Assembly: GCA_016212465.1 (NCBI GenBank)
Contig: JACRGE010000034.1
Span: 1 to 47,134 of the forward strand
DNA length: 47,134 nt
Reading direction: 5' to 3'
Origin: Microcaldota archaeon
GTDB lineage: Archaea > Micrarchaeota > Micrarchaeia > Norongarragalinales > JACRGE01
Numbering within the stretch: position 1 is the first letter of the stretch; the number at the start of each line of letters is the position of its first letter. This document shows positions 2,760 through 21,454 of the stretch, one piece after another. The position numbers were made by a program, and so were the translations under genes. The notes beneath the pieces were generated by a model, which was given only the letters and a program-made list of their open reading frames with translations, was not told the DNA's origin and ran no database searches.

Positions 2760-4097
2760 TTGGCTTATTCTAAAGAAATAGACGGAATCCTGAAAGCGAA
2801 AAGGATTTCAGTAGGCGATGGAGCGCGCATAACTACATCGGGAGTAGTATACGAGGGGCTCCTGATGCCAAGGATTGAAGTGGGAGACGACAACGTGCTC
2901 ATTCTGAAACTCCAGTCAGGTTACAACATCGGTCTCGAGTATTCCTCCTCAATGCAAATCGAGAAAATGGAAGCCAATGCTTTTTCAGAAAAACCGACGC
3001 CTCGATACTCCTTAAAGAAAAGCAGCCTACCGAAAATTTCCTTGATTGCAACAGGTGGCACCATTGCCTCAAAGATAGACTACCGCCTCGGTGGCGTAAA
3101 GAGCCTGCTCGAGCCCCAAGAGATATGCCAGGCGATGCCTGAGCTCGTGAATGTAATAAGCTTTAAATCACTTCTTTCGCCGTTCAAGATATTCAGCGAA
3201 AACATGTCCCCCGTAGAGTGGCAGAAGATAGCCGCCCTTGCTGCAAAGGAGCTTAATTCAGACATAAAAGGGCTGGTTATAACCCACGGCACGGACACGC
3301 TTCACTTCACTTCAGCTGCACTTTCGTTCATGCTCAAAAACCTTTGCAAACCCGTTGCACTAGTCGGAGCTCAGCGCTCTCCGGACCGAGGCAGTTTCGA
3401 CGGCGCAATGAACATGGCTTGCGCTGCTCACTACCTGCTCTCGGATGCAGCTGAAGTCGCGATCGTGATGCATGCCACGTCCAGCGACGACTATTGCTAC
3501 GCAATTAGGGGGACTAAGGTGCGGAAGATGCACACTTCAAGAAGAGATGCTTTCCGGCCCGTAAACGACCTTCCGCTTGCGAAGATATATTCCAACGGAA
3601 GAACGGAGTTCTTGAAAAAAAATTACCGTAAAAGGAGTGCGGGCAAGGTGGTTGCGGACACGGCATTTGAGAAAAAAGTTGCATTGTTGAAGGCCTACCC
3701 CGGCTCTGAGCCAGGGCTTGTTGATTTCCTGATCGACAAAAAATACAAGGGGATCGTGGTAGAGGCCACTGCGCTGGGCCAGATTCCGACGTTTACTTTC
3801 GATAAGAAAAACTCTTGGCTACCCCAAATCAAGCGGGCTGTGGAGGAGGGAATCATCGTGGCATTCGCAACCCAGTGCCTCTACGGAAGAACCAATCCCT
3901 TCGTTTACGAGACCGCCAGGGAGATGTACCGCCTGGGAGTAATCTACTGCGAAGACATGCTCCCAGAAGTCGCATATGTCAAACTTGGATGGGTGCTCGG
4001 GCACACGAGAAAAAAGGAAGAGGTAAGAAAACTCATGCTCACAAGCTTGGCAGGCGAAATAAATCCAATGCTTACTGAAGAAGAATTCCTAATCTGA
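2760..4097 (+). CDS. gatD: Glu-tRNA(Gln) amidotransferase subunit D (asparaginase-like)
   Basis: Asparaginase motifs IATGGTIASK and THGTDTLHFTSAALSFML, archaeal GatD N-terminal domain, immediately upstream of gatE. Start TTG 2760 (RBS GGTGGT) or GTG 2742. Confidence 0.95.
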   Translation: MAYSKEIDGILKAKRISVGDGARITTSGVVYEGLLMPRIEVGDDNVLILKLQSGYNIGLEYSSSMQIEKMEANAFSEKPTPRYSLKKSSLPKISLIATGGTIASKIDYRLGGVKSLLEPQEICQAMPELVNVISFKSLLSPFKIFSENMSPVEWQKIAALAAKELNSDIKGLVITHGTDTLHFTSAALSFMLKNLCKPVALVGAQRSPDRGSFDGAMNMACAAHYLLSDAAEVAIVMHATSSDDYCYAIRGTKVRKMHTSRRDAFRPVNDLPLAKIYSNGRTEFLKKNYRKRSAGKVVADTAFEKKVALLKAYPGSEPGLVDFLIDKKYKGIVVEATALGQIPTFTFDKKNSWLPQIKRAVEEGIIVAFATQCLYGRTNPFVYETAREMYRLGVIYCEDMLPEVAYVKLGWVLGHTRKKEEVRKLMLTSLAGEINPMLTEEEFLI

Positions 4098-4119
4098 TTT
4101 ATTCAATTAAGTGCGTTAT

Positions 4120-5940
4120 ATGAAAGCGAAGATAGGGATAGAGGTCCACCAGAGACTTGCAACTGAGAGGAAGCTCTTCTGTAACTGCAGCAGCACAGTC
4201 TCTAATGAAGTGCCTTGTCTGACTGTGAAAAGGCGAATGAGAGCCGTTGCCGGAGAGCTGGGGGGAGTTGACCCAGCTGCTGCTTTTGAGATGAGCAGGG
4301 GAAGAGAGTTCACTTACCAGCTCTTCAAAAACTCTAGTTGTCTGGTGGAATGCGATGAAGAGCCGCCTCACGAACTGAACAAAGAGGCTCTTGAGACCAC
4401 GCTTGAAGTCGCTCTCCTGCTGAATGCAAAGCGGGTTAATGAGCTCCACGTAATGAGGAAAACAGTTGTAGACGGCTCTGCTGCAAGCGGCTTCCAGAGA
4501 ACGATGTTGGTTGGAACCGACGGAAGCATCAAGACCTCGAGGGGACCTGTTGGGATACTATCCGTCTGCCTTGAGGAAGAAAGTGCAGGCATCGTTGAAG
4601 CCTTTGAAGCAGGCACGGTTTACCGGCTTGACCGGCTCGGAATTCCGTTGATCGAAATCGCGACTTCCTCTAACATCGTCGACGGCGCGCATGCACGCGA
4701 AGTAGCTGAAAAGATCGGCATGTTGCTTCGTTCGACAGGAAAAGTGCAAAGAGGCATTGGAACCATTCGCCAAGACCTCAACATTTCCATCGAAGGAGGT
4801 GCGAGAACTGAGATAAAAGGCGCTCAAGAACTCGAGCTCCTGCCCAAGCTTGTTGACAACGAAATACGTAGGCAGAGCGCCCTCATTGAAATAAAAAACG
4901 AGTTGAAGAAAAGAAACCCAGGGAAGTTCGTATTCGCTCCAGTTGACCTGTCCCATGCATTTTCGAAAACACACTGTGGCATCCTGAAGAAAATCCTGGA
5001 AAGAGGCGGTGCCATAATGGGATTTAGACTGCCTGCGTTCAGCGGCCTCTTGGGAAGAGAATTGATGCCGAACCACAGGTTCGGAACCGAATTGAGTGGT
5101 TATGCGAAGGTGGTCGGGGTAAGCGGGTTGATTCACTCCGACGAAGGCTTGGAGGCATATGGTTTCTCTGAAGCGGAGTTGGCTGAAGTAACCAAGCTGC
5201 TATCCTGTTCTTCAGGCGATGCCTTCATTTTGTGCGGGGGGGAAAGGAAGAGAGTTGCAGCAGCGTTGAAGGCAGTTTTCGAGCGGGCGTTGCAGGCCTT
5301 TGAGGGCGTAGTGAAGGAAACGCGGCGGGCCGAAGGCGAGCTATCTGTTTACCTGCGTCCCCTGCCTGGCTCTCAGAGGATGTACCCTGAGACAGATGTT
5401 ACACCAATCAAAATAGAGCGGAAGGAAGTGGAAGAGATTCGTAAAAAACTGCCTCTTTCTTGCGATGAGAGGAAGAAAAAATACTTTGAGTGGGGCCTCG
5501 GCCAAGTCCTTGCTGAAAAGATGTTGAAGTCACCTGATTTCACCTTGTTCGAAGAAATCGTTGAAAAAACCAGGGCTGAAGGAAAGACTGTTGCAGGCAT
5601 CCTGCTCGAAAGCATGGTTGCCCTGAGGCGGGAAGGCTTTGCAGTGGATTCCATTGAAAAACAGCATTTGATAGAGTTGTTTTCGCTTTACAAAAAGAAT
5701 AGGATTGGAAAAGCAGCCATTGAAGAAGCGTTGAAAGACGTTTCCAGAGGCAAAAGCGTCCAAGAAACCATTAAAGAAAAGAACCTGGAGTTGTTTGACG
5801 ACCCCAAGCTCAAAAAACTCGTTTCCGAATTGCGCTCGCAAGGCATTTCCGATCCAAAGCAGGTATTCAGCGAAATGATGCGGCGCTATAGAATGAACGT
5901 GGATCCGAAGCGCCTTCAGCTTCTGGTGGGCGTGAAATAA
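4120..5940 (+). CDS. gatE: Glu-tRNA(Gln) amidotransferase subunit E
   Basis: KIGIEVHQRLATERKLFCNC, GTIRQDLNISIEGGARTEIKGAQEL and a C-terminal YqeY-like tail; pairs with gatD. Confidence 0.95.
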   Translation: MKAKIGIEVHQRLATERKLFCNCSSTVSNEVPCLTVKRRMRAVAGELGGVDPAAAFEMSRGREFTYQLFKNSSCLVECDEEPPHELNKEALETTLEVALLLNAKRVNELHVMRKTVVDGSAASGFQRTMLVGTDGSIKTSRGPVGILSVCLEEESAGIVEAFEAGTVYRLDRLGIPLIEIATSSNIVDGAHAREVAEKIGMLLRSTGKVQRGIGTIRQDLNISIEGGARTEIKGAQELELLPKLVDNEIRRQSALIEIKNELKKRNPGKFVFAPVDLSHAFSKTHCGILKKILERGGAIMGFRLPAFSGLLGRELMPNHRFGTELSGYAKVVGVSGLIHSDEGLEAYGFSEAELAEVTKLLSCSSGDAFILCGGERKRVAAALKAVFERALQAFEGVVKETRRAEGELSVYLRPLPGSQRMYPETDVTPIKIERKEVEEIRKKLPLSCDERKKKYFEWGLGQVLAEKMLKSPDFTLFEEIVEKTRAEGKTVAGILLESMVALRREGFAVDSIEKQHLIELFSLYKKNRIGKAAIEEALKDVSRGKSVQETIKEKNLELFDDPKLKKLVSELRSQGISDPKQVFSEMMRRYRMNVDPKRLQLLVGVK

Positions 5941-6210
5941 ATTAAGCTGTTTAAGCAGGACATACAAAACCGAAGACACCGAGGCATCTAATAAATGAGT
6001 TTTTATAGCGCGTTATCTTTGTTATTTTTTGTTTGAGGTGTGAGCTTACGAGGCAAGCAAACAAAAGATCTCCTGAATATATCCGCCAGTCCACAAAAAA
6101 CTTTGAATTTGGTGAATTTTTAGACAACGCCTGAAAACACAAAGACTTTAAAAGCCGTGCATCCCTAAACATTTAAATAACAAAAAAACAAAAAGAATTT
6201 GGTGGTATTA

Positions 6211-6414
6211 ATGAGAGTAAGCAAGATAGGATTAGCAAGCCTTTTGCTCGGATTGACCTTGGTGCTCGGAACGTGGTGGTTCGGGTTCTACAACGGCGTG
6301 CAAGGCATGTTTACCAAGAGCATCATAAGCGCTGTCGTGGTCACCATCCAAGGCGGGCTGATTCTACTTGGATTGTTCATCCTATTCATAGGATTGCTCA
6401 TGCTCGTAATCTAA
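6211..6414 (+). CDS. Small two-TM membrane protein
   Basis: 67 aa, two hydrophobic segments; ATG 6211 preceded by GGTGGT and a TATA-like TTTAAATA. Confidence 0.6.
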   Translation: MRVSKIGLASLLLGLTLVLGTWWFGFYNGVQGMFTKSIISAVVVTIQGGLILLGLFILFIGLLMLVI

Positions 6415-6511
6415 AAGTGCTTCTTTTTCTTTTCATTCTTCCTTATTTTATTTGTTTTCCAGCGCATGCATAATCCGTTTATTTGCAGTAAGTCTTTTTC
6501 AGGTGCTTTCA

Positions 6512-8254
6512 ATGAGGATAGCTATCGTGGACAGGAAGAAATGCAACACGGGAAAATGCGGCCTTGAGTGCATGAAAATCTGTCCCGGCGTGAAAATGAA
6601 GGAAGAGACCATAAAGGTAGAAGAAGATTTTCCAATCATAAGCGAGGAGCTGTGCAGCGGATGCGGTCTGTGCGTCAAGAAATGTCCATTCAAAGCCATT
6701 CAAGTGACGAATCTCCCCTCGGAATTGGGCAAACCTACCTTCCAGTATGGCTCCAATTCCTTTCGTTTATATGGCTTTCCGCTTCCGAAGAGGAATTCAG
6801 TAGTGGGCATAATCGGCGTGAATGGAATCGGCAAAACTACTGCTTTAGAGCTTCTCAGGGGAGCGCTAAAACCGAATTTTGGGAAAGCATCTGAAGCAGA
6901 CTGGAATGCAGTCAAAAAGGAATTCAAAGGCCTCGAGGTGCTCAACTACCTCAAAATGATTTACGATGGCGGAGTGAAGGTAAGCCACAAAATGCAGAAC
7001 ATCGAATCCCTTTCCAAGCCCGTTAAGGCAAGGGAGCTTCTTGAAGACTGTGACGAGAAAGGAGCCCTGAAAGAGACCGTGAAGGAATTCGGGCTTGTAA
7101 ACTGCATGCAGAAGAAAATGAATGAATTGAGCGGAGGCGAGCTCCAGCTGACCGCCATTGCATGCGCTTTCCTGAAAGATGCAGAGTTGTACTTCTTCGA
7201 CGAGCCAGCCTCTTATCTCGACGTCAGGCAAAGACTTACCTTGGCTAAAAAGATTAAGGGACTCAGTGAAAACGCTTCCGTGATGGCAATAGAGCACGAC
7301 CTTTCTGTGCTGGACTACCTGTGCGACTACGTGCACGTGCTCTACGGAAGACCCGGAGCATTTGGGGTAGTGTCCAGATTGAAGAGCGCCAGGAACGGCA
7401 TTAACGAATATTTAGCGGGCTATTTGAGGGAAGAGAACGTCAGGTTCAGAAACCATTCCATCCGATTTGAGCCAAGCAGGTTATCTGAGTTTGCCACAAA
7501 GAAAAAGTATGAATACGGTCCGATTGAAAAAAATTATCCTGGCTTTAGCATGCTGGCGGAAAAAGGCGACTTGGGCGAAAGCGAGGTCATGGGAATCATT
7601 GGACCGAATGCAACTGGAAAAAGCACATTCGTGAAAATCCTTGCAGGAGTAGAGAAGCCAGACTCTGGCAAGGGACTTGGCCAAAAAAGAATTTCATATA
7701 AACCGCAGTATATAAAATCGTCTTTCCCTGGAACAGTCGGGGAACTGATTGCCTCAACTGATGCGAAAAAGGAATTTCTTAATGAAATCAAGGCAAAGCT
7801 GCTCATAGACGAAATACGCGACAAAAAAGTTTCGAGCCTGAGCGGAGGAGAGCTCCAAGCTCTTTCAATCTGCCTAACGCTTTCCAAAGAAGCGGACCTT
7901 TATCTCCTCGACGAGCCGTCTGCTTTCCTGGACGTGGAGCAGAGGCTAATAGTCGGAGGCCTCGTGAGGAAGATCGTGAAGAAACGTAATAAAAACGCAT
8001 TCGTGGTCGACCATGACCTGCTGTTCATTGACTCAGTGAGCGACAGGCTTATGGTGTTTGAAGGAATGTCTGGGAAAGAAGGGCTTGCGCATGCGCCACT
8101 CATGCTGCGAGACGGAATGAACCTCTTCTTGAAGGAGCAGGGCATAACCTATAGACGGGATCCGGAAACCGGCCGGCCGAGGGCCAACAAACCTGGTTCG
8201 GTGAAGGACAGGGAACAAAAGGAGAAAGGGGACTACTATTATCTCACTGAATAA
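6512..8254 (+). CDS. ABCE1/Rli1 ribosome recycling ATPase
   Basis: N-terminal Fe-S cluster domain (CNTGKCGLECMKICPGVK, CSGCGLCVKKCPFKAI), two ABC domains (GVNGIGKTT, LSGGELQ, GPNATGKST, LSGGELQ) and ABCE1-type C-terminus. Confidence 0.97.
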   Translation: MRIAIVDRKKCNTGKCGLECMKICPGVKMKEETIKVEEDFPIISEELCSGCGLCVKKCPFKAIQVTNLPSELGKPTFQYGSNSFRLYGFPLPKRNSVVGIIGVNGIGKTTALELLRGALKPNFGKASEADWNAVKKEFKGLEVLNYLKMIYDGGVKVSHKMQNIESLSKPVKARELLEDCDEKGALKETVKEFGLVNCMQKKMNELSGGELQLTAIACAFLKDAELYFFDEPASYLDVRQRLTLAKKIKGLSENASVMAIEHDLSVLDYLCDYVHVLYGRPGAFGVVSRLKSARNGINEYLAGYLREENVRFRNHSIRFEPSRLSEFATKKKYEYGPIEKNYPGFSMLAEKGDLGESEVMGIIGPNATGKSTFVKILAGVEKPDSGKGLGQKRISYKPQYIKSSFPGTVGELIASTDAKKEFLNEIKAKLLIDEIRDKKVSSLSGGELQALSICLTLSKEADLYLLDEPSAFLDVEQRLIVGGLVRKIVKKRNKNAFVVDHDLLFIDSVSDRLMVFEGMSGKEGLAHAPLMLRDGMNLFLKEQGITYRRDPETGRPRANKPGSVKDREQKEKGDYYYLTE

Positions 8255-8416
8255 AAGAGGGTTGGAACTGTAGGAATCTCCAAGAAAAGAAGGCTCGTGT
8301 GATTGTCTAATACTTCTCTAAATCCCGCGGTTATTCGTTGACCTAAAACAAAAAACAACAAAACCAATGCAACTTAAACTGATTTATTAAACAACTTCCG
8401 GTTCGTGTAAAAAAAT

Positions 8417-9040
8417 TTAAACGACTTCCATTACTTTCAGCACATCGCCGCTCCGGTTGACCGCAGCCAGTTTAGAATATTTTCCGTAGCTCCACTCAAC
8501 AACCCACAGCTCCTGAACAGGAAGATCCGACACCAAGCTTTCTACAAGGGAGCATTCCTTGCAGTCTTTCGTCGCCCTAATCTTCTCTGCACTAAAGAAC
8601 AACACACTGGTTTTTACCCCCCTCGCGTTGCAGAACTGATTTTCTATCTGCTTGCTTTTGCCTGAAGCGATAATCGCCTCTTCTTCATAGAGTATAGGCT
8701 TGCCTGCAGTGCAACCCTTGGTTATGGTTTCAGAGCGAAAGCGCAGCGGCATCAACTCATAATACCTGACAAAAACCTTTGGGCAACACGCGTTCAAGGG
8801 GTCTTCAACAGTGATTTTAATATTTATCTTCCAGGCATCACTGCCGTTTCCCGAGAATCCTATTGGCGGAAGCACAGTCACGGAAGCACCAGGATAAGAA
8901 GATTGAGCGTCTTTTTTAACTAAGGCGATTGCTTCATCCATGCTCATGGTCGTTTGGCGAAACGGGGCAAAGGAATAGATTGCGAGAACTAGGAAGATAA
9001 CAATTATCAGTAATACAGCCGGTCTATCCATGCCCTTCAC
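8417..9040 (-). CDS. Signal-anchored extracytoplasmic protein, unknown function
   Basis: Single N-terminal TM segment then a polar Cys-containing domain; last gene in the pilus-associated minus-strand gene run. Confidence 0.6.
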   Translation of the reverse strand: MKGMDRPAVLLIIVIFLVLAIYSFAPFRQTTMSMDEAIALVKKDAQSSYPGASVTVLPPIGFSGNGSDAWKINIKITVEDPLNACCPKVFVRYYELMPLRFRSETITKGCTAGKPILYEEEAIIASGKSKQIENQFCNARGVKTSVLFFSAEKIRATKDCKECSLVESLVSDLPVQELWVVEWSYGKYSKLAAVNRSGDVLKVMEVV

Positions 9041-9135
9041 AGAAAAGCTACTCCCTTAAAGCTTAATAATTTTTCTTGATGAAGAGAACATCCCATGATC
9101 CGGCGTCATCTGGTTTTCGACACTCTCTCGAAGGC

Positions 9136-9657
9136 TCATCCACAATTGCTTAAGGTAATATCTTGCGCTGGAAATAATATTTTGAGTTGGGGAACGTTCT
9201 GTTGAAATTGGATGTTTATGTTCTGCTGGGTGAAATCCTTCTTTGCTTTTCCCGAAGGCGAAACAACGTAGACAGAGTATTGGACGTTGAAGCTACTTCC
9301 ACAATCCAGATTACTGAAAGAGGACAGTCCAGAATAGAAAACTGAAAAACCGTCTTCGCTCAGGGTGCGATTGGATTCGTCAAGATACTGTTTTATTTTC
9401 GTATTGATGGCATCTGTCGGATTGTTTGGATTACCTGCTGGACAACAGGCTTCAGCAGCAGCATCAACAACTGCGTCAACCACACTCGAGCTAAGGAAGG
9501 GTATTGCATCTTGAAGCCGGTCAGCGGTCTTCTTGGCTTCCATCTCATGAAGCTCTGCTTGAGTGTAGGCTGAGAAAGAGTATACGGAAGCAACCGCAGC
9601 CATTATAACGAAGGAAACCAAAACAGCTGTGATGATGGAGAGATAACCTTTTTTCAT
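9136..9657 (-). CDS. Pilin-like / N-terminally anchored secreted protein
   Basis: MKKGYLSIITAVLVSFVIMAAV hydrophobic N-terminus; ATGA overlap with the upstream gene. Confidence 0.6.
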   Translation of the reverse strand: MKKGYLSIITAVLVSFVIMAAVASVYSFSAYTQAELHEMEAKKTADRLQDAIPFLSSSVVDAVVDAAAEACCPAGNPNNPTDAINTKIKQYLDESNRTLSEDGFSVFYSGLSSFSNLDCGSSFNVQYSVYVVSPSGKAKKDFTQQNINIQFQQNVPQLKILFPAQDITLSNCG

Positions 9658-10040
9658 GGCGCCACCCAAGCCTCGTGTTTAGAGGAAGCAATGCTTTCCT
9701 GTTGATTCAAACACGCGTCTGTGCCATACACCAACGTAGTTCTTCCACCGCATATCAAGGAGTATTTGTAGTAGATGCTGTGGACTACCAAAGGACCGGA
9801 AAGCGGAGATGAAGTTGAAACCTGGGAGCCAGTATCATCCTTGAATTGATTACGCAATTGTTCGGTGTCTGTAACGCCACCCTGTGTTATTACGAGATAA
9901 TCCCGCGCAAGTGCCTCGAGCGCGACGTATTTCCCTACTTCTGGGGGTTTGCTTGAAAGGAGCACTGCAACAGAGAACACGGAAAAAAGTATGGCCAAAG
10001 CTAGAAGCGAATCCAGTGTGAGAAGAAATCCTTTCCTCAT
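9654..10040 (-). CDS. Pilin-like secreted protein
   Basis: MRKGFLLTLDSLLALAILFSVFSVAVLL N-terminus; ATGA overlap with the preceding gene. Confidence 0.6.
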   Translation of the reverse strand: MRKGFLLTLDSLLALAILFSVFSVAVLLSSKPPEVGKYVALEALARDYLVITQGGVTDTEQLRNQFKDDTGSQVSTSSPLSGPLVVHSIYYKYSLICGGRTTLVYGTDACLNQQESIASSKHEAWVAP

Positions 10041-10378
10041 CCACACACCTTTACTTTTACGACATCCCATCCGCTCTGGTCTGCTTTAGCGACAAGGCGC
10101 GTGGCATAAAAAGTGTTTTTTTCACAAGAGCATTGGCTCAAGGTATCTGTTTCCTTGTATTTTATGCAGGAATGGGGCGGAGACGGTGTTGGCGCAGGCA
10201 AGCTTGAAACGATGGCTTCTGCAATGACGTCCGCTTCGTTTGAAGAAAGCTCGTTTTGGAGGTTGTGGCGCCGTTGATTGAATTCATACATGTTCAAGAC
10301 AGCCCCCAATACTATGGTGAAGACAGCAACTGAAATAAGGAAATCCATGCTGAATATCTGCGCCCTCTTTTTTCCCAT
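10037..10378 (-). CDS. Pilin-like protein
   Basis: MGKKRAQIFSMDFLISVAVFTIVLG resembles a pilin N-terminus; in a run of similar genes. Confidence 0.6.
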   Translation of the reverse strand: MGKKRAQIFSMDFLISVAVFTIVLGAVLNMYEFNQRRHNLQNELSSNEADVIAEAIVSSLPAPTPSPPHSCIKYKETDTLSQCSCEKNTFYATRLVAKADQSGWDVVKVKVCG

Positions 10379-10392
10379 TCCAACACCATTTA

Positions 10393-10821
10393 TCAACACG
10401 AGCCCATGCTGAACTTGACTGTTCCAACTTTTTTTATGCATACCTCTCCTGCGTCGTTGACGCGCTGGTCAAGGCAGCCAGAGAAAACATCTGCATCCAA
10501 GTTGCATGCCGCAGACCCGTCAGCTGAAACATCGTAAACCAATGAATTAATTTTCACTTTGTTGCCCTCTGTTTTTATGGAGTATACAACTGGCCTGTTT
10601 TCGTGGATGATGCAAGGAAGCCTGTATGTCACTTCAGTTTCGGAGACGCATACTCTGTTCGCGAGGAGAACGAGCCCGTTTGCCAGCAGCTTCTCTTGGT
10701 TGTAGAGCGAGGAAGAGGATTTGGTTAACAGGTTGAGGTAATTAGCCAGCCAAAGCATGAGCAACAGTAGGACTGAGAAAACAAAAAACAATTCAAGGGA
10801 AGCTTGAGCGCGCACATCCAC
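10393..10821 (-). CDS. Class III signal-peptide pilin-like protein
   Basis: MDVRA|QASLELFFVFSVLLLLML matches the QxSxExxxL class III motif. Confidence 0.7.
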   Translation of the reverse strand: MDVRAQASLELFFVFSVLLLLMLWLANYLNLLTKSSSSLYNQEKLLANGLVLLANRVCVSETEVTYRLPCIIHENRPVVYSIKTEGNKVKINSLVYDVSADGSAACNLDADVFSGCLDQRVNDAGEVCIKKVGTVKFSMGSC

Positions 10822-13947: not shown

Positions 13948-15036
13948 TCAGACTACCTTCCAAAACACACTCAACACAAAGCCCAGGAACAAAACCGGCG
14001 CAAAGGCAATGGTTTCCCTCACACCCAGATACTTTAATGCCCCCAGCTTTTTTAACTCTTTGATTTCCTTCCCAGAAATCCCTGCTGCATTCAATGAATC
14101 CACCACAATCTTGTTTCTCGGAAGAAAGAAACCGCGCCCCCGCACAAGGCTTCCCAGCGCTTCCGCCATAGTCCACTTCATAACCCTGCCTTTTTCTAAG
14201 TAAACGGTTTCAGCCGGCACCATTCCCTTCCTTAAATCACGGAGCGCAACCCATTTAACGAGCACTCGAGAGGAAAAAACCTTCAAGACGTTCTTTAGAA
14301 AAGCCAGTGTAATAATTGAAGCGAAAACAAGTGGAAAGACTGAAATAGTTGAATTAAAGTCCAAGAGAAGGCCGGCAAAGAAAAGCAGGAACGGAACTGG
14401 ATTTGGTTTTTTAAGAAGCGGGTTTAAGAAAAACCCTGCAACAACCAAGAAAACCAATGCAAGCAGTAAATCCAGCCGAGAGGCTAGGAGGAACAAGGGA
14501 GTTGAAAGCAAGGAATTCAGGAGAGAAGCCTCGATTAACTCAATTTTAAAAACATTCCTTCTCAGCTTAACCAATTGCTTGAAGTGAATTACTAAAAGCC
14601 CTAGTGCCAGCATGAAAGCTGAATTCAGGAAGATAGAGAGAAAAGAATAATAGTTGTAGTCTGCAAAAAGAGGGAATGCTGCGGAAAGCGCCCAAAAGAA
14701 CTTGGCGTCTCCTCCTCCCCAGACCCCTAGCTTAAAGAGAAGGTAAGAGAAAAGCAGGGAAAGCAAGAGAAACAAGATATAGGTTGCTGAAAAAATTGAT
14801 GAAAACACTGAAATAAAAATGGAGGACAAAAGCAGCAAGTAATTGAGGTTGTTAGGGATTCTTCTCTCTTTCACATCAAAATATATTGCTGCAAGCGAGA
14901 ATAGGGAAACGACGAGAAATGGAATAAACAGCTTAATGGAAGAAAGCACTGAGGAAACCATGAGAAGAAAGGGAGAAGAACTAAAAACGGTGGGGAATGG
15001 AGTGCTGAAGACAGGGCAGAAGGGGTTTAATCCCAT
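13948..15036 (-). CDS. A24-family archaeal prepilin peptidase (EppA/FlaK-like)
   Basis: Polytopic; two catalytic Asp contexts, AIYFDVKERRIPN and GVWGGGDAKFFWALS, embedded among pilin genes. The start may be internal (ATG 14961). Confidence 0.85.
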   Translation of the reverse strand: MGLNPFCPVFSTPFPTVFSSSPFLLMVSSVLSSIKLFIPFLVVSLFSLAAIYFDVKERRIPNNLNYLLLLSSIFISVFSSIFSATYILFLLLSLLFSYLLFKLGVWGGGDAKFFWALSAAFPLFADYNYYSFLSIFLNSAFMLALGLLVIHFKQLVKLRRNVFKIELIEASLLNSLLSTPLFLLASRLDLLLALVFLVVAGFFLNPLLKKPNPVPFLLFFAGLLLDFNSTISVFPLVFASIITLAFLKNVLKVFSSRVLVKWVALRDLRKGMVPAETVYLEKGRVMKWTMAEALGSLVRGRGFFLPRNKIVVDSLNAAGISGKEIKELKKLGALKYLGVRETIAFAPVLFLGFVLSVFWKVV

Positions 15037-15046
15037 TGCACCACTT

Positions 15047-15214
15047 TTACCTCAACAGCATGGCTATGGTTGCATCGCGTTCCATCGCAATATGCGCTGC
15101 TACAGTGTCAGTGAACGCCTTTACGTTGATGGCAATCGCAATCCCCACTACCACGATAAGCAATCCAAGTGCAACTAGCAGGATATACTCCGTCGCCGCC
15201 TGCCCCCGCTTCAT
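15047..15214 (-). CDS. Short class III signal-peptide pilin (55 aa)
   Basis: MKRG|QAATEYILLVALGLLIVVVGIAIAINV. Confidence 0.75.
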   Translation of the reverse strand: MKRGQAATEYILLVALGLLIVVVGIAIAINVKAFTDTVAAHIAMERDATIAMLLR

Positions 15215-15327
15215 GGAACGCCTCTTCAACAGCATACAGACCCAAATAGATTAGACTGGAGGTATTTAAAACTTGGCTACATAGCTTTATTTTATGAAAG
15301 TAAAATGATAACAAAAAGGTAAGAAAG

Positions 15328-15687
15328 TTACTTACCACAACAAGTCAAGCAGAATCCACAAAACCCCGTGCCTGTCGTCGCCCACTCATAACTCGTTGAT
15401 GTCGCGGTACACAATCCGGCGGTGGTATCCCCCTTTATTCTATAGCCGTTGAGTCCCTTACAAGAAGGCACAGAAGCGTAATCGACGACACCATCGGCTT
15501 TAAAATTTCCACTAGTATCCCAGCACCCACTGCTGGACGCAAGCTGAGTATAGCAAGCTTGTTTCATAGCTTGGGCAGGTCCGGTCTGTGCAAGCGGTCC
15601 CCTCAATAGGACGACGATGATGACGACAATCAGCAAAACTCCGGCTAGAAGCAGGATGTATTCAAAAGCACCTTGACCTTTCTTCAT
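15328..15687 (-). CDS. Class III pilin with Cys-containing head
   Basis: MKKG|QGAFEYILLLAGVLLIVVIIVVLL; head SSGCWDTSGNF...; C-terminus CGFCLTCCGK. Confidence 0.75.
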   Translation of the reverse strand: MKKGQGAFEYILLLAGVLLIVVIIVVLLRGPLAQTGPAQAMKQACYTQLASSSGCWDTSGNFKADGVVDYASVPSCKGLNGYRIKGDTTAGLCTATSTSYEWATTGTGFCGFCLTCCGK

Positions 15688-15816
15688 CATATCACCAACC
15701 ATTTTTTCATTCAACTTTAACTAAACCAACAAAAACGACTATAGAGAGAAATGCGGGGGGCTTTAAAAAGATTTCGTTTAAATGGGGGAGAGCATTCTGT
15801 GGGTTATGTGACTAAC

Positions 15817-16326
15817 CTATGGTGTTTTGCAACAATGCGGAGTAGAAGAATCGCATAGGCCTTGAAGCTCGGAGCCGCTGGAGCAGGCACTGGCTTGGCA
15901 AACGCCGCCAATCTTTTCGCAGACTGGACCACAGCACACCTTGTCTTTCGGGTCGCAGATGCCTGCAAGAGAAAAGCCGCTGGCGCACTCGGCTCCCCCG
16001 CATACTCCGTTAATGAGTTCGCAGGGAGGTCCGCAGTAGTGGGTGGGGTCGCCCTCGAGTTTGACGCCGCAGCGGGATGCGAGCCGTTGGTTTACTGGAG
16101 TTGCATCAGGCATCCACTCACCGTGTTCGTCAAAGCAGCCGGAGCGCAAGTCAGAGTTCAGTCTTTGCCTGCAGTAAGCGTAATAATCTTGGATGGTTTT
16201 GTTCTCAGTTGGAAAGAGAATGCCTCCTCTAACGACTACGGTTACGATGACTACGATGAGTATTCCGACGCCGATGAGCAGCAGGTACTCTACGGAAGTT
16301 TGGCCCTTCAACGAAACACCTTTCAA
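15817..16326 (-). CDS. Class III pilin with two tandem six-Cys modules (beta-defensin-like spacing)
   Basis: LKG|QTSVEYLLLIGVGILIVVIVTVVV, followed by two repeats of C-x6-C-x4-C-x9-C-x6-CC. TTG start at 16326 overlapping the upstream stop (TTGA). Confidence 0.8.
   Translation of the reverse strand: MKGVSLKGQTSVEYLLLIGVGILIVVIVTVVVRGGILFPTENKTIQDYYAYCRQRLNSDLRSGCFDEHGEWMPDATPVNQRLASRCGVKLEGDPTHYCGPPCELINGVCGGAECASGFSLAGICDPKDKVCCGPVCEKIGGVCQASACSSGSELQGLCDSSTPHCCKTP
15829..15921 (-). repeat. Six-Cys module 2: CEKIGGVCQASACSSGSELQGLCDSSTPHCC
   Basis: Spacing C-x6-C-x4-C-x9-C-x6-CC, same as module 1. Confidence 0.85.
15931..16023 (-). repeat. Six-Cys module 1: CELINGVCGGAECASGFSLAGICDPKDKVCC
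   Basis: Spacing C-x6-C-x4-C-x9-C-x6-CC. Confidence 0.85.
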
Positions 16327-16424
16327 CCCATTACGTATCTTTTGATGAAGAACGTGATTAAAGCAACTACTCCGACTACCGAGCCAATCAGCAGCAGGTA
16401 TTCAACTGCGGTTTGTCCCTTCAT
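16323..16424 (-). CDS. 33-aa mini-pilin (class III signal peptide), absent from the supplied ORF track
   Basis: Reverse strand reads MKG|QTAVEYLLLIGSVVGVVALITFFIKRYVMG*. Strong class III motif; its stop overlaps the TTG start of the next pilin. Confidence 0.75.
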   Translation of the reverse strand: MKGQTAVEYLLLIGSVVGVVALITFFIKRYVMG

Positions 16425-16514: not shown

Positions 16515-17534
16515 TTACATGATGCAGGAAATCGAGGAGCCAATAATCAAGTCGCTGAAGATCTTTCCTCCCTCGAACATGAGGATGGTGAACAACACCA
16601 TGATTGGAACATAAAGAATGTATTTGAAGGGGTCTCCTTCTCGAATGATTCCTACTGCAATGAGGGAGACAATTGCTTGAGCGGAAAGGAATACTGTGAG
16701 GAGGAGGTTGAGCCAGCTTAAATCTAGTGGAGAGGGGATGCATGCGTCTGCAGAGGGGTTGAAAACCATTTTCTGGGAAGTGCAGTAGGCTGCTTTCTGC
16801 TGGGGCAGCAGGTTGGAGACGGAAATAGTTGTTTGGCCTGTTGCAGCAATCATGCCGCTTCCCATGTAACAAACGATGCTTAAGGAAAAACCGAATATGA
16901 ATGGCGAAAGCAACAGCGTAGAAATATACAGGAACATGACGTGCATGGTTGTCCTGGAATATCTTTCCCTCTTCACCCTGAGGATTTCCTTGGCGTCGTC
17001 TGCAATGGAGTTCATTACATCAGCTAAGCCCGCACCTGCCTTGCGTGCATCCAATATGATTGTAACGCATCTCTTGAAGATGATGGAGCCCGTTTTTTTG
17101 GCGGCGTCTGTGAGGACTGCATCAAACTCCCTGCCCTCCCTCAACTGCTTTAAAGAAACCTTGAGGTCGACGCTGATGGGACCGTAATCCGAGTTTGCCG
17201 CTTCTTCAAGCGCGCTCTCCGTTGTTCCACCTGACTTGAGGACTGCTGACATGTGCTTTAGAACATCGGGAAGAGTAGAGTCAATCTGAGAGATTCTGGC
17301 GTTCCTTAAGGTGATGGGGAAGCTGACTATGAGGCTGAGGACTGCAATGAAGCCGATGACTGCAATGAGGGGCTTGAGGTTCAGGACGAGGAATATGAGC
17401 GCGGTTGCCAATGCAATAAAGAAGATGACTGCAATGAATTTCTTGAAGCTGAACCTGAATCCCGTTCCCTCGTAGTAAACCTCCATTTTCTTGTACTCTT
17501 CCTTCAACCTTGCCTTGATTTCGTTGGAATTCAT
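16515..17534 (-). CDS. Type II secretion F / TadC-like pilus assembly membrane protein
   Basis: GspF-like patterns (LPDVLKHMSAVLKSGGTTESALEEAA; AGAGLADVMNSIADDAKEI) and polytopic C-terminus. Confidence 0.85.
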   Translation of the reverse strand: MNSNEIKARLKEEYKKMEVYYEGTGFRFSFKKFIAVIFFIALATALIFLVLNLKPLIAVIGFIAVLSLIVSFPITLRNARISQIDSTLPDVLKHMSAVLKSGGTTESALEEAANSDYGPISVDLKVSLKQLREGREFDAVLTDAAKKTGSIIFKRCVTIILDARKAGAGLADVMNSIADDAKEILRVKRERYSRTTMHVMFLYISTLLLSPFIFGFSLSIVCYMGSGMIAATGQTTISVSNLLPQQKAAYCTSQKMVFNPSADACIPSPLDLSWLNLLLTVFLSAQAIVSLIAVGIIREGDPFKYILYVPIMVLFTILMFEGGKIFSDLIIGSSISCIM

Positions 17535-17538
17535 TTCA

Positions 17539-18594
17539 TCACGCTGGTTCTATCCTCCTTATTATGAACAGGATGAGTCCCATCGCCGCAAACACGAGGA
17601 GGAAACTGATGTAGACGATGCTCATCGGAATCTTGCCGGCGAAAATCGGGAGCTGTATGATGGCTGACAGAATCGTGATGGTAACAGGTGCAACCACTGC
17701 AACCATTATGAACACTACGTTGATAATGTTCAGTTTTTCAGTGAAATCCCGTATGAGCATCCTCGTCTCAAACGAAACATCTGAGGCGATTCCCGACATG
17801 ATGTCGGAAAGGTTTCCGCCAGTCCTCAAAGCCCTGTTCATCTGCATAATGGTTTTCTTCAATCCCTTTGAGCGAGTTGAGTAAGCGAGTTTCATGAACG
17901 CTTCTTCAGTGTTCATCCCGCCATCAATGTCCCGCAACACTTTTTTGATTTCCATGCTGAGCAACCCGTAATCAGCTTCAGCAATGGACTGCAACGCCCT
18001 GTGAAAGCTTACGCCAGACTTCAGTTGGGTTGCGAGGTGCCTCAACGCAAAGGGAAGCTCCCTGTCTATCTTGAATGCGCGGTTGGTTGCCCTCATGGAA
18101 GGATAGAGGAGCGCAAGCAAGGACAAGCCGATGAAAACAAACAAGCCGATTAAGGGTGCTAGCGCAGCCAGGGATATGTCCGCGATTGCAACGCCCAAGG
18201 TGATGAGAAGCAACATGATCAACAAGGAGGAAAGCAAGGCAATGGATGAAACTGCCACCAGGTATGCCTCCACGCTGAGGTCAATGCCTGCAGCCGCAAG
18301 ATCGACTTTCATGTTTTTTGTGACTGGAATGGAGGAAAGGAATTCAGCTATCCTCAGTATAACTCCCTGCAAGGAAGAGTATACTCTTCCAACCAAGGCA
18401 AGCCCCTTTGCCGTAAATGTCTCGGAACTGACTTTTGAAAAGTCAAGCGGCAATTCCTTGGACTGGCCTTCAAGCCTTGCCTTCAGCTCTGCGACCTTTC
18501 CTGCTGGAGCTGGTGCAACAGGCCTCTCTTTTTCCTTGAGCCTGCTTATTATCTTCTCGAGCTTTTCCTTTTCTTTATCCACTTCCTTATCCAT
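17539..18594 (-). CDS. Type II secretion F / TadC-like pilus assembly membrane protein (paralogue)
   Basis: LPFALRHLATQLKSGVSFHRALQSIA and RTGGNLSDIMSGIASDVSFETRMLIRDFTEKLN; adjacent to the other TadC-like gene. Confidence 0.85.
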   Translation of the reverse strand: MDKEVDKEKEKLEKIISRLKEKERPVAPAPAGKVAELKARLEGQSKELPLDFSKVSSETFTAKGLALVGRVYSSLQGVILRIAEFLSSIPVTKNMKVDLAAAGIDLSVEAYLVAVSSIALLSSLLIMLLLITLGVAIADISLAALAPLIGLFVFIGLSLLALLYPSMRATNRAFKIDRELPFALRHLATQLKSGVSFHRALQSIAEADYGLLSMEIKKVLRDIDGGMNTEEAFMKLAYSTRSKGLKKTIMQMNRALRTGGNLSDIMSGIASDVSFETRMLIRDFTEKLNIINVVFIMVAVVAPVTITILSAIIQLPIFAGKIPMSIVYISFLLVFAAMGLILFIIRRIEPA

Positions 18595-18822: not shown

Positions 18823-20391
18823 TCACGTCTTCAGCTTCTTCTTCAACACGTAGTTTTGGGTGATTTCGCAAACGGAATTGATGTCGCGAACGCCTTTCTT
18901 GCTCATTTCCTTGAGTTTGTTCTCTCGCTCAGAGAGCTCTTCCAAGAGTTCTTTCTTCGTCAAGCCCGTGTACTTCGTAAGCAACTGCAGGAAATTGGAT
19001 GAAAACTCTGTCTTCTCTTGCGTGTCCTTGAGCGGGTTCCAGGAGTAAAGCGTTTGCAACTCGAGCTTGTCGTTATTGCCCGCAATCACTTCAGTCAGCT
19101 CAGTGATTCTCCGAATGGTTCCCCGCTTCCTGTCGTGAATCCTTTGCTCCATGAGAATGAAATTCAGTGCAGAGAGCATGACGTGGGGAACGCTGATGGG
19201 CGGACTTTCAAGCCGGACGAGAGTCTCCCTGGCTGAATTAGAGTGCACTGTCCCCAAACAACCCTTGTGGCCTGTGTTCATGGCAGCGAACATCGTGAAC
19301 CCCTCTGCTCCACGGATTTCGCCCACAATGATTCTATCCGGTCTCATCCTCAACGAATTCTTTACTAAGTCGTTCATCGTGATTTCGCCTGTTCCCTCCA
19401 GTCCAGGAGGCCTGGTTTCAAAGCGGACGAGATGCGGGAGGGGCAGGTTCAACTCCGCTGTGTCTTCTATTGTAACAATGCGTTCGTCTGCAGGGACGAA
19501 GGAAGCCAAGACGTTGAGGGTCGTGGTCTTGCCTGCGGCAGTTCCTCCAGCAACCAGTATGTTTGCAGGATAAGCTCCGAGCCCATCAACGCACATCCAA
19601 AGAAAGGCAGCGAGCTCGCTGCTCAATGTATTCAGGTTAATCAAATCGATTATCGTGAACGGGTCCTTCCTGAATTTCCTTAAGCTCAACGTGGAGCCGT
19701 CGAGGCTAATCGGAGGAAGGGTTGCGTTCACTCTTGTTCCATCAGGCAGCCTGGCGTCAAGCAACGGAACCTGGAAATCAATTCTCCTTCCAACGATGCG
19801 CGCAACTCGTTCTATAAGGTTTCTGATGTCTTTGTCTTCGTAGAAAACGATGTTGGTTTTCATCATCTCATATTTCCTGTGGTGCACGTAAACAGGTCTG
19901 TTGGAGCCTATAATCAGGATGTCTTCCAGGTTGTCGTCCCTCACCAAAGCATCTATGAGGCCATAGCCGATCATTTCCTTGACAACAGCGTCCGCATAGA
20001 ATTCCTTCGCGTGAATGGGAATCTTTAATTCAGGCGAGGCGTCGATGATCTTCATTATCCTGTCAAAGTATTTTCTCCGTCTCTCCTCTTCTGTCCCGAA
20101 GTACCCTGGCTCTGTTTCAATGACGCTGGCAGCGATTTCAACCAATGCTTCTATGAGCGCCTTTTCCTCCCCTCTATAGTGTGGAACCGGGACTTCGTAC
20201 TTGAAGAGCGGGTCTCCTTGGACCTTGTATATTCTGACATCGCCATATGAGTCAACAAGAGTCTTTTCCTCTTTTTTTTCTTCTGGAACTGCCTCTTTTT
20301 TCTCTGCTTCCTTTTCAGCAGTAGCGATTGCTTGCGCCTTGCGTTCTTCCTTTGCTTTCTTGAGGAGTTCTTCGAGGTAACTCATGCTCAT
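18823..20391 (-). CDS. Type II/IV secretion ATPase (TadA/VirB11/PilB-like)
   Basis: Walker A AGGTAAGKTTTLN, Asp box TIEDTAELNLPLPHLVRFETRP, Walker B RMRPDRIIVGEIRGAEGFTMFAAMNTGHKGCLGTVHSN. Confidence 0.93.
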   Translation of the reverse strand: MSMSYLEELLKKAKEERKAQAIATAEKEAEKKEAVPEEKKEEKTLVDSYGDVRIYKVQGDPLFKYEVPVPHYRGEEKALIEALVEIAASVIETEPGYFGTEEERRRKYFDRIMKIIDASPELKIPIHAKEFYADAVVKEMIGYGLIDALVRDDNLEDILIIGSNRPVYVHHRKYEMMKTNIVFYEDKDIRNLIERVARIVGRRIDFQVPLLDARLPDGTRVNATLPPISLDGSTLSLRKFRKDPFTIIDLINLNTLSSELAAFLWMCVDGLGAYPANILVAGGTAAGKTTTLNVLASFVPADERIVTIEDTAELNLPLPHLVRFETRPPGLEGTGEITMNDLVKNSLRMRPDRIIVGEIRGAEGFTMFAAMNTGHKGCLGTVHSNSARETLVRLESPPISVPHVMLSALNFILMEQRIHDRKRGTIRRITELTEVIAGNNDKLELQTLYSWNPLKDTQEKTEFSSNFLQLLTKYTGLTKKELLEELSERENKLKEMSKKGVRDINSVCEITQNYVLKKKLKT

Positions 20392-20395
20392 CACT

Positions 20396-21454
20396 TCAAG
20401 ACGCGGTTGGTCCGCTGATGCTGACTGTAAGCTCTCTCTTCGGCGGACATGCATGGGAGACTATGAGCTTGCCGAAAGTACTCTCAGTAACAGGCGCGAT
20501 CTGGACCCAGAAGTTGAGCTCTTCGCCTGGCGGGATAGAGTTTGCGTCAAATGAAATCAGTTTAACTAGCTCCGCAAGATTGTCCGACACTTTTACTGAG
20601 AGCTCCGTGATTTCACTTTCCCCCAAATTCTTTATTCTGACAAGGTTTGTACAAGGTGGATTCCTGCAATCGATGTTTCCGCCTTCCGGCGAGATGACGG
20701 AAAGCTGAGGTTTGTCAGTGGTTGTCAGAGAAACTGGAATGGAAACCTCCGTGTACTTAATCCTCAACTCTCCCTTCACCTTGCCTTTACTACCTAGTGC
20801 AACCACTGGGACTTGAAAGTTACTCTCGCCCTTTGGCCCCAGCGGGCTCGGCTGGGTTTTAATCAACCTCTCCAGCTCGCCAGTGCCCACGAACTCTACA
20901 CTCGCTGAAGCGTCTCCTTTGTTCTTTACAGTGACGGTTAACATCTTCGTGCAGCCTGCGCCCACTGTCACATCAATGGACGGCGCGTTTTCTATTGCAA
21001 GATCCCAGTTCCTTGGAACCTCAATTGTTTCTGACTTGCTTTCGCCTGAAGCCAGGCTAATGGTTCTCGGTATACCCGCGTAGTTCGACCCGACGTCGGC
21101 CACTATCGTAAGGTCCTTTTCAGATGGAACCAAAAACTCTGCAATTCCCTTTTCAGTCATCTTGGATTCTATATTATTGCACATGAAGAAAAGAAAGCAG
21201 TTCCTTGCAGTTTCCCCATCCTCTAGGATCTCTACGGTTCCATCCAACGCTTTTCCCGAGTCTTTTTCAACCAATGCAACTGTGAGGGTGGCTGGCTTTG
21301 GATACAAGAAAAAATACCAGACCAGAGAAAGCAATATGATTACAAGGATGGAGAACTTGATTACGCCGAATCTGCGAATCCAAAGAGCCAAGTCTGAAAA
21401 GGCGTTTTTCACCTTGTCCAGGAAGCCTTCTTCAAAACCGTATTCCTCTTCCAT
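20396..21454 (-). CDS. Single-TM protein with tandem Ig-like (CARDB-like) domains
   Basis: TM near the N-terminus, then beta-rich segments (LTVTVKNKGDASASVEF; NLVRIKNLGESEITELSVKV). Directly upstream of the secretion ATPase. Confidence 0.65.
   Translation of the reverse strand: MEEEYGFEEGFLDKVKNAFSDLALWIRRFGVIKFSILVIILLSLVWYFFLYPKPATLTVALVEKDSGKALDGTVEILEDGETARNCFLFFMCNNIESKMTEKGIAEFLVPSEKDLTIVADVGSNYAGIPRTISLASGESKSETIEVPRNWDLAIENAPSIDVTVGAGCTKMLTVTVKNKGDASASVEFVGTGELERLIKTQPSPLGPKGESNFQVPVVALGSKGKVKGELRIKYTEVSIPVSLTTTDKPQLSVISPEGGNIDCRNPPCTNLVRIKNLGESEITELSVKVSDNLAELVKLISFDANSIPPGEELNFWVQIAPVTESTFGKLIVSHACPPKRELTVSISGPTAS

What the first reader, a model, noticed from the sequence alone, without database searches (positions are those of the whole stretch)
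15817..16326. Archaeal pilin carrying two tandem six-cysteine modules with beta-defensin-like spacing
Seen in sequence: a class III pilin N-terminus (LKG|QTSVEYLLLIG) is followed by a linker and two back-to-back modules, CELINGVCGGAECASGFSLAGICDPKDKVCC and CEKIGGVCQASACSSGSELQGLCDSSTPHCC. Both have exactly C-x6-C-x4-C-x9-C-x6-CC. Established knowledge: this falls inside the classical beta-defensin cysteine spacing (C-x4-8-C-x3-5-C-x9-13-C-x4-7-CC). Inference: a surface filament or tip subunit displaying disulfide-rich modules, possibly for adhesion, host/partner contact or antagonism. Spacing alone does not prove homology to defensins; convergence is possible.
Basis: partly seen in the sequence, partly recalled or inferred. 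Interest (0 to 1): 0.8.

Follow-up and report, generated by a model that had tools for sequence, protein, structure and literature searches.

The report
Archaeal pilin carrying two beta-defensin-like modules
A surface-filament subunit of a small-genome archaeon ends in two small cysteine-rich domains that, by sequence and by predicted structure, look like beta-defensins, a peptide family described so far only from animals; they probably form a rugged binding head on the filament rather than a secreted antibiotic.

Summary
It sits in a complete archaeal type IV pilus operon and carries two tandem C-x6-C-x4-C-x9-C-x6-CC modules. The resemblance to beta-defensins goes beyond cysteine spacing. Pfam Defensin_beta is hit above its cut-off (28.5 bits tandem, 26.0 module 2). 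Shuffles keeping only the cysteines give no hit; shuffles also keeping the two motif glycines reach at most 17.6 bits. A profile of four prokaryotic modules finds essentially only defensins in the PDB. An AlphaFold2 model of module 2 (pLDDT 87) gives beta-defensins as its top 19 Foldseek hits (TM about 0.8). Syntenic pilins in the same order lack the modules, so they are a lineage-specific graft. A second pilin-like protein with one such module occurs in an Aenigmatarchaeota-phylum genome; further modules occur in an Aenigmatarchaeota and a myxobacterial lipoprotein. Most likely this is a modular pilin displaying disulfide-locked binding heads. Net negative charge argues against a classical membrane-lytic defensin. 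Homology versus convergence with animal defensins is undecided, and no function was tested.

The parts
15817..16326 (-). Modular pilin ORF, 169 aa from TTG 16326; more likely 164 aa from TTG 16311 (MKGQTSVEYLLLIG...)
   Evidence: PF04021 E 3.2e-5 and PF00711 21.2 bits, both above cut-off; start inferred from the MKGQ motif and AAAGGTG upstream
16210..16311 (-). Class III signal (KG|Q, E at +5) and hydrophobic helix
   Evidence: PF04021; AF2 helix 11-34, pLDDT 83-90
16033..16173 (-). Four-cysteine pilin head shared with pilins of the same order
   Evidence: alignments A8 and A9: invariant cysteines
15931..16023 (-). Beta-defensin-like module 1, CELINGVCGGAECASGFSLAGICDPKDKVCC
   Evidence: 14.4 bits alone, below the cut-off of 21
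15829..15921 (-). Beta-defensin-like module 2, CEKIGGVCQASACSSGSELQGLCDSSTPHCC
   Evidence: 26.0 bits alone; AF2 pLDDT 87.1; Foldseek top 19 hits beta-defensins
16323..16424 (-). Upstream 33-aa mini-pilin MKGQTAVEYLLLIGSVVGVVALITFFIKRYVMG; stop overlaps TTG 16326
   Evidence: matched next to T2SSF in G008, G028, G001, G003
15328..15714 (-). Paralogous Cys-rich pilin without defensin-like modules
   Evidence: PF04021 E 2.5e-7
15047..15235 (-). Short helix-only pilin, conserved in the order
13948..15036 (-). Archaeal prepilin peptidase (Peptidase_A24 + Arc_PepC)
16515..17534 (-). Pilus membrane platform protein, T2SSF copy B
   Evidence: E 3e-16
17539..18594 (-). Pilus membrane platform protein, T2SSF copy A
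   Evidence: E 1.4e-19
18823..20454 (-). Pilus assembly ATPase, T2SSE
   Evidence: E 1.1e-48

Best explanation
The gene encodes a modular type IV pilin of a small-genome archaeon. Its N-terminal class III signal and helix are cut by the adjacent prepilin peptidase and built into a filament by the adjacent ATPase and membrane proteins (inferred from gene content and order). A short four-cysteine head follows, shared with sister pilins. Grafted to its end are two small disulfide-locked domains with the beta-defensin (trans-defensin) fold (supported by sequence profiles and a predicted structure; disulfide pairing C1-C5, C2-C4, C3-C6 inferred). Exposed at the filament tip or along its surface, they most likely act as a stable binding head for a partner cell or surface ligand (inferred), not as a released membrane-lytic peptide. 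The graft arose in this lineage and was duplicated once; its C-terminal slot varies strongly between related species.
For: Operon content and class III signal, with synteny ATPase - T2SSF - T2SSF - mini-pilin - variable pilin - short pilin - peptidase in G008, G028 and G001, and part of it in G003. Defensin_beta above cut-off; the signal needs more than cysteines: Cys-only shuffles 0 of 5 hits, Cys+2Gly shuffles at most 17.6 bits, real module 2 26.0 bits. Profile of four prokaryotic modules against 177,635 PDB sequences: human beta-defensin 1 E 1.5e-4, and nearly all 43 hits are defensins. AF2 helix plus three strands, pLDDT 87.1; Foldseek top 19 all beta-defensins, TMq up to 0.82. Syntenic pilins lack the modules or end at the corresponding YCG. 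Independent second pilin-like protein with one module, G445/L254. The modular-pilin principle is established in bacteria (PMC8179133).
Against: Module 1 alone is below the Pfam cut-off (14.4 bits). The best AF2 model stands out (87.1 against 58-69 for the other four), AF2 may recall beta-defensins from the cysteine frame, and the best Foldseek E is only 0.011. The full-length model is poor (57.7). Neither VKOR nor a DsbA-like Thioredoxin_4 was found in the 91%-complete genome, so the oxidising route is unknown. No binding partner or filament has been shown. The modules were found in one genome of 301 in the phylum.
Confidence: 0.6

Rival explanations
1. The modules are antagonistic: the filament presents defensin-like domains that damage neighbouring bacteria or archaea.
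For: Beta-defensin fold. In G445 the module-bearing pilin-like gene lies in one cluster with SLT transglycosylase and M23 peptidase genes, and archaeal peptidoglycan hydrolases that kill bacteria are described (PMC12352652, title and abstract only).
Against: The window modules carry net charge -2 and -1 and L133 -2; only L189 and L254 are +1. No release signal or immunity gene is apparent, and no hydrolase gene was identified in the pilus operon of the window.
Confidence: 0.12
2. Convergent small disulfide knob: only the cysteine frame resembles beta-defensins; the modules stabilise or space the pilin head without specific ligand binding.
For: Cys+Gly shuffles already reach 17.6 bits; sister pilins of the order carry other Cys-rich ends, e.g. 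knottin-like modules in G023/L025, so Cys-rich decoration is a general habit here.
Against: Real modules (module 2, L133, L189) score well above the shuffles (26.0 to 37.2 bits), and the PDB profile search returns almost only defensins, not WAP or EGF.
Confidence: 0.25
3. Artefact: frameshift, assembly error or contamination created the C-terminal extension.
For: Fragmented draft genome (104 contigs); orthologs lack the extension.
Against: Continuous frame, two homologous modules, embedded in a syntenic archaeal operon.
Confidence: 0.03

Closest known systems
Vertebrate beta-defensins (Pfam PF00711; e.g. human beta-defensin 1, PDB 2NLS, 2NLB)
   Same: Six-cysteine frame, G-x-C before Cys2 and Cys4, predicted helix plus three strands; Pfam cut-off passed; top Foldseek and profile hits
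   Different: Archaeal, no secretory prepropeptide, tandem, fused to a pilin, net negative charge
Big defensins (PMC7203481)
   Same: A beta-defensin-like domain attached C-terminally to another domain
   Different: The N-terminal part here is a class III pilin, not the big-defensin hydrophobic domain; no Defensin_big hit
Bacterial cis-defensins (PMC11561630)
   Same: Defensins in prokaryotes
   Different: Those are CS-alpha-beta with C-x-C near the end; these modules have the trans frame ending in CC
Modular type IV pilins, e.g. Streptococcus sanguinis PilB (PMC8179133)
   Same: Functional module grafted on the C-terminus of a small pilin, likely exposed at the filament tip
   Different: The graft is a beta-defensin-like pair, not a vWA or lectin domain; archaeal pilus
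Archaeal type IV pilus operons (census: PMC4858521, abstract only)
   Same: T2SSE, two T2SSF, prepilin peptidase, several class III pilins
   Different: One pilin carries the defensin-like pair

Membership tests
Beta-defensin (PF00711) | Profile score above the curated cut-off | tested here: met
   21.2 bits whole protein, 28.5 tandem, 26.0 module 2; module 1 alone 14.4, not met; cut-off 21
Beta-defensin (PF00711) | Cysteine spacing C-x4-8-C-x3-5-C-x9-13-C-x4-7-CC | tested here: met
   6-4-9-6 in both modules
Beta-defensin (PF00711) | Short helix plus three-stranded sheet | tested here: met
   predicted only, module 2 only:
Beta-defensin (PF00711) | Disulfides C1-C5, C2-C4, C3-C6 | not testable with these tools
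   needs mass spectrometry or a structure
Beta-defensin (PF00711) | Cationic secreted antimicrobial peptide | tested here: not met
   net charge -2 and -1, fused to a pilin; activity itself not testable. So: beta-defensin-like modules, not beta-defensin peptides
Beta-defensin (PF00711) | Common descent with animal defensins | tested here: inconclusive
   32-residue domains; E 1.5e-4 at best against solved structures
Type IV pilin (class III signal) | Class III signal with Glu at +5 and hydrophobic helix | tested here: met
   PF04021 E 3.2e-5
Type IV pilin (class III signal) | Encoded with pilus ATPase, platform proteins and prepilin peptidase | tested here: met
Type IV pilin (class III signal) | Assembled in a filament | not testable with these tools
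   needs microscopy or filament proteomics
Cis-defensin / CS-alpha-beta | C-x-C at the end, parallel disulfides | tested here: not met
   modules end in CC; disulfide orientation itself not testable
Knottin / WAP / EGF | Match to their profiles or structures | tested here: not met
   no match at useful scores

The most novel reading that the evidence does not exclude
The trans-defensin domain is not an animal invention: an old, rare prokaryotic domain, seen here in archaeal pilins and surface lipoproteins and in a myxobacterial lipoprotein, is homologous to animal big and beta-defensins and may be the source they were recruited from.
Probability: 0.15. Interest if true: 0.9.

Novelty: new variant of a known kind. 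Interest (0 to 1): 0.72.

Why it matters
[quoted passage not shown] Modules with this fold on archaeal filaments would give either a striking convergence or a candidate outgroup. They would also show how small-genome archaea diversify their pili, possibly for attachment to partner cells. The claim is directly testable by disulfide mapping of a 37-residue peptide.

Tried and rejected
A1 profile in viral contigs gave one match, L086, which is not a Cys module. The exact-frame pattern in viral contigs gave 42 stretches; those in an open frame are low-complexity Cys runs. PF00711 across 295 relatives rings at noise level, also in 12 of 14 control genomes; two matches pass the cut-off, and the other one (G224) has a stop inside. 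P0001 has no match in phages and the L189 peptide none of note in plasmids. L268 (Aenigmatarchaeota phylum, C-x9-C-x3-C-x9-C-x5-CCC) was set aside as probably a different Cys module. Homology of the G445 pilin head with the window pilin head: hhalign probability 70%, aligned mostly over the helix, inconclusive. Full-length structure prediction too poor to use.

Full report
OBSERVATION. Translation of the plus strand at these coordinates contains a stop. The class III signal is recognised by Pfam (PF04021, E 3.2e-5). Two modules, 16023-15931 and 15921-15829, have exactly C-x6-C-x4-C-x9-C-x6-CC; the pattern with its two glycines occurs twice in the window and in none of 100 dinucleotide shuffles. 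From the sequence, the likelier start is TTG 16311 (MKGQTSVEY, as in sister pilins starting MKRGQ or MKKGQ), since TTG 16326 overlaps the stop of a 33-aa mini-pilin at 16424..16323.

SURROUNDINGS. The gene lies in one minus-strand gene row with the T2SSE ATPase (18823-20454), two T2SSF platform proteins (17539-18594, 16515-17534), the mini-pilin, a second Cys-rich pilin (15328-15714), a short pilin (15047-15235) and an archaeal prepilin peptidase (13948-15036), followed by further pilin-like ORFs. The same order of genes is found in related genomes G008, G028 and G001, and in part in G003. In the slot of the window gene these have pilins of 64-70 aa with 0-2 cysteines (G003, G028, G001) or about 110 aa with six cysteines ending at YCG plus a few residues (G008). 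The window protein reads HYCGPPCELING at this place and continues into the modules. The modules are therefore a graft onto a variable C-terminal slot. In the same order, G023 has a pilin with other Cys-rich modules of knottin-like look (by eye; Pfam names none) and one diverged CESAGGVC segment that Pfam does not recognise.

HOW DEFENSIN-LIKE. Pfam Defensin_beta scores 21.2 bits for the protein and 28.5 for the tandem (cut-off 21); module 2 alone 26.0, module 1 alone 14.4. Control: five shuffles of module 2 that keep the cysteines give no hit; five that keep the cysteines and the two motif glycines give 17.6, 12.6, 17.4 and no hit twice. So much of the score comes from six cysteines and two glycines, but the real sequence adds about 8 bits. 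A profile of four prokaryotic modules searched against all PDB sequences returns human beta-defensin 1 first (E 1.5e-4), then other beta- and alpha-defensins, with hevein-like peptides only weakly. AlphaFold2 on module 2 with three aligned modules gives helix 2-6 and strands 10-12, 21-25, 32-35 (pLDDT 87.1; the other four models 58-69). Foldseek against the PDB gives beta-defensins as the top 19 hits (human beta-defensin 1 TMq 0.80, human beta-defensin 2 TMq 0.82, crocodile CpoBD13 rmsd 1.3; best E 0.011). These lines are not fully independent, as all rest on the same cysteine frame.

RELATIVES. In 301 genomes of the phylum the module profile finds only the window gene at convincing scores. 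These two were chosen by a pattern that fixes the cysteines and glycines, so their scores are partly built in; they nevertheless exceed the shuffle ceiling by 14-20 bits. A profile search not tied to that spacing found a 125-aa pilin-like protein in another genome of that phylum (G445/L254), MRLSLELLVIASVIL... with C-terminal CEKAGGVCKKACESGEEEIAGQCGSGQKCC (6-3-9-5; 22.9 bits alone, 19.6 in the whole protein). It lies beside paralogs that lack the module and in one cluster with SLT transglycosylase and M23 peptidase genes. Pfam does not recognise a class III signal in it, so 'pilin-like' there is my reading. A defensin-like module on a pilin or pilin-like protein has thus been seen twice.

MECHANISM. 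Shown: gene content, signal, modules, profile matches. Predicted: fold. Inferred: export and polymerisation by the adjacent machinery, three disulfides per module, exposure on the filament, binding role. For binding rather than killing: net charge -2 and -1, fusion to a filament subunit, variability of the slot between species, and the precedent of modular pilins that carry adhesion domains in bacteria (PMC8179133). An oxidase was not found (VKOR and Thioredoxin_4 absent; genome 91% complete), but cysteines are conserved in the aligned pilins of the order, so another route may exist.

KNOWN OR NOT. [quoted passage not shown] PMC7203481); the bacterial defensins reported there are cis-defensins. 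No paper on trans-defensin-like domains in archaea was found in the searches made, which cover open-licence PMC only and of which I read only a few papers. I file the protein as a modular archaeal pilin (member by signal and gene neighbours) with beta-defensin-like modules (fold class likely; family membership by descent not shown; the cationic secreted-peptide feature not met).

Noticed in passing
16323-16424 (-): A 33-residue mini-pilin, only signal and helix, is conserved next to the T2SSF gene in several related genomes; it could be a helix-only filament subunit.
   Followed up: partly
L290 (G445:C2:43000-58000), 3462-8386 (-): Cluster of pilin-like paralogs, one with a defensin-like module, together with an SLT transglycosylase and an M23 peptidase gene in a genome of the Aenigmatarchaeota phylum; possibly a cell-wall-directed export system.
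   Followed up: partly
L262, 150-5471 (-) (G023:C47): A class III pilin N-terminus in one open frame of 1,774 codons with 43 cysteines, including two knottin-like modules and one diverged CESAGGVC segment.
   Followed up: partly
30688-33057 (-): Replication factor C small subunit interrupted by what looks like an intein (from SVAPETPILV to LLHN before SDERG).
   Followed up: no
8417-10821 (-): Further short membrane-anchored, pilin-like ORFs downstream of the pilus genes, probably minor pilins.
   Followed up: no
L189, ORF from 998 (+): Citreicoccus inhibens (myxobacterium) encodes a small lipoprotein-type peptide with the strongest Defensin_beta score seen here (37.2 bits).
   Followed up: partly
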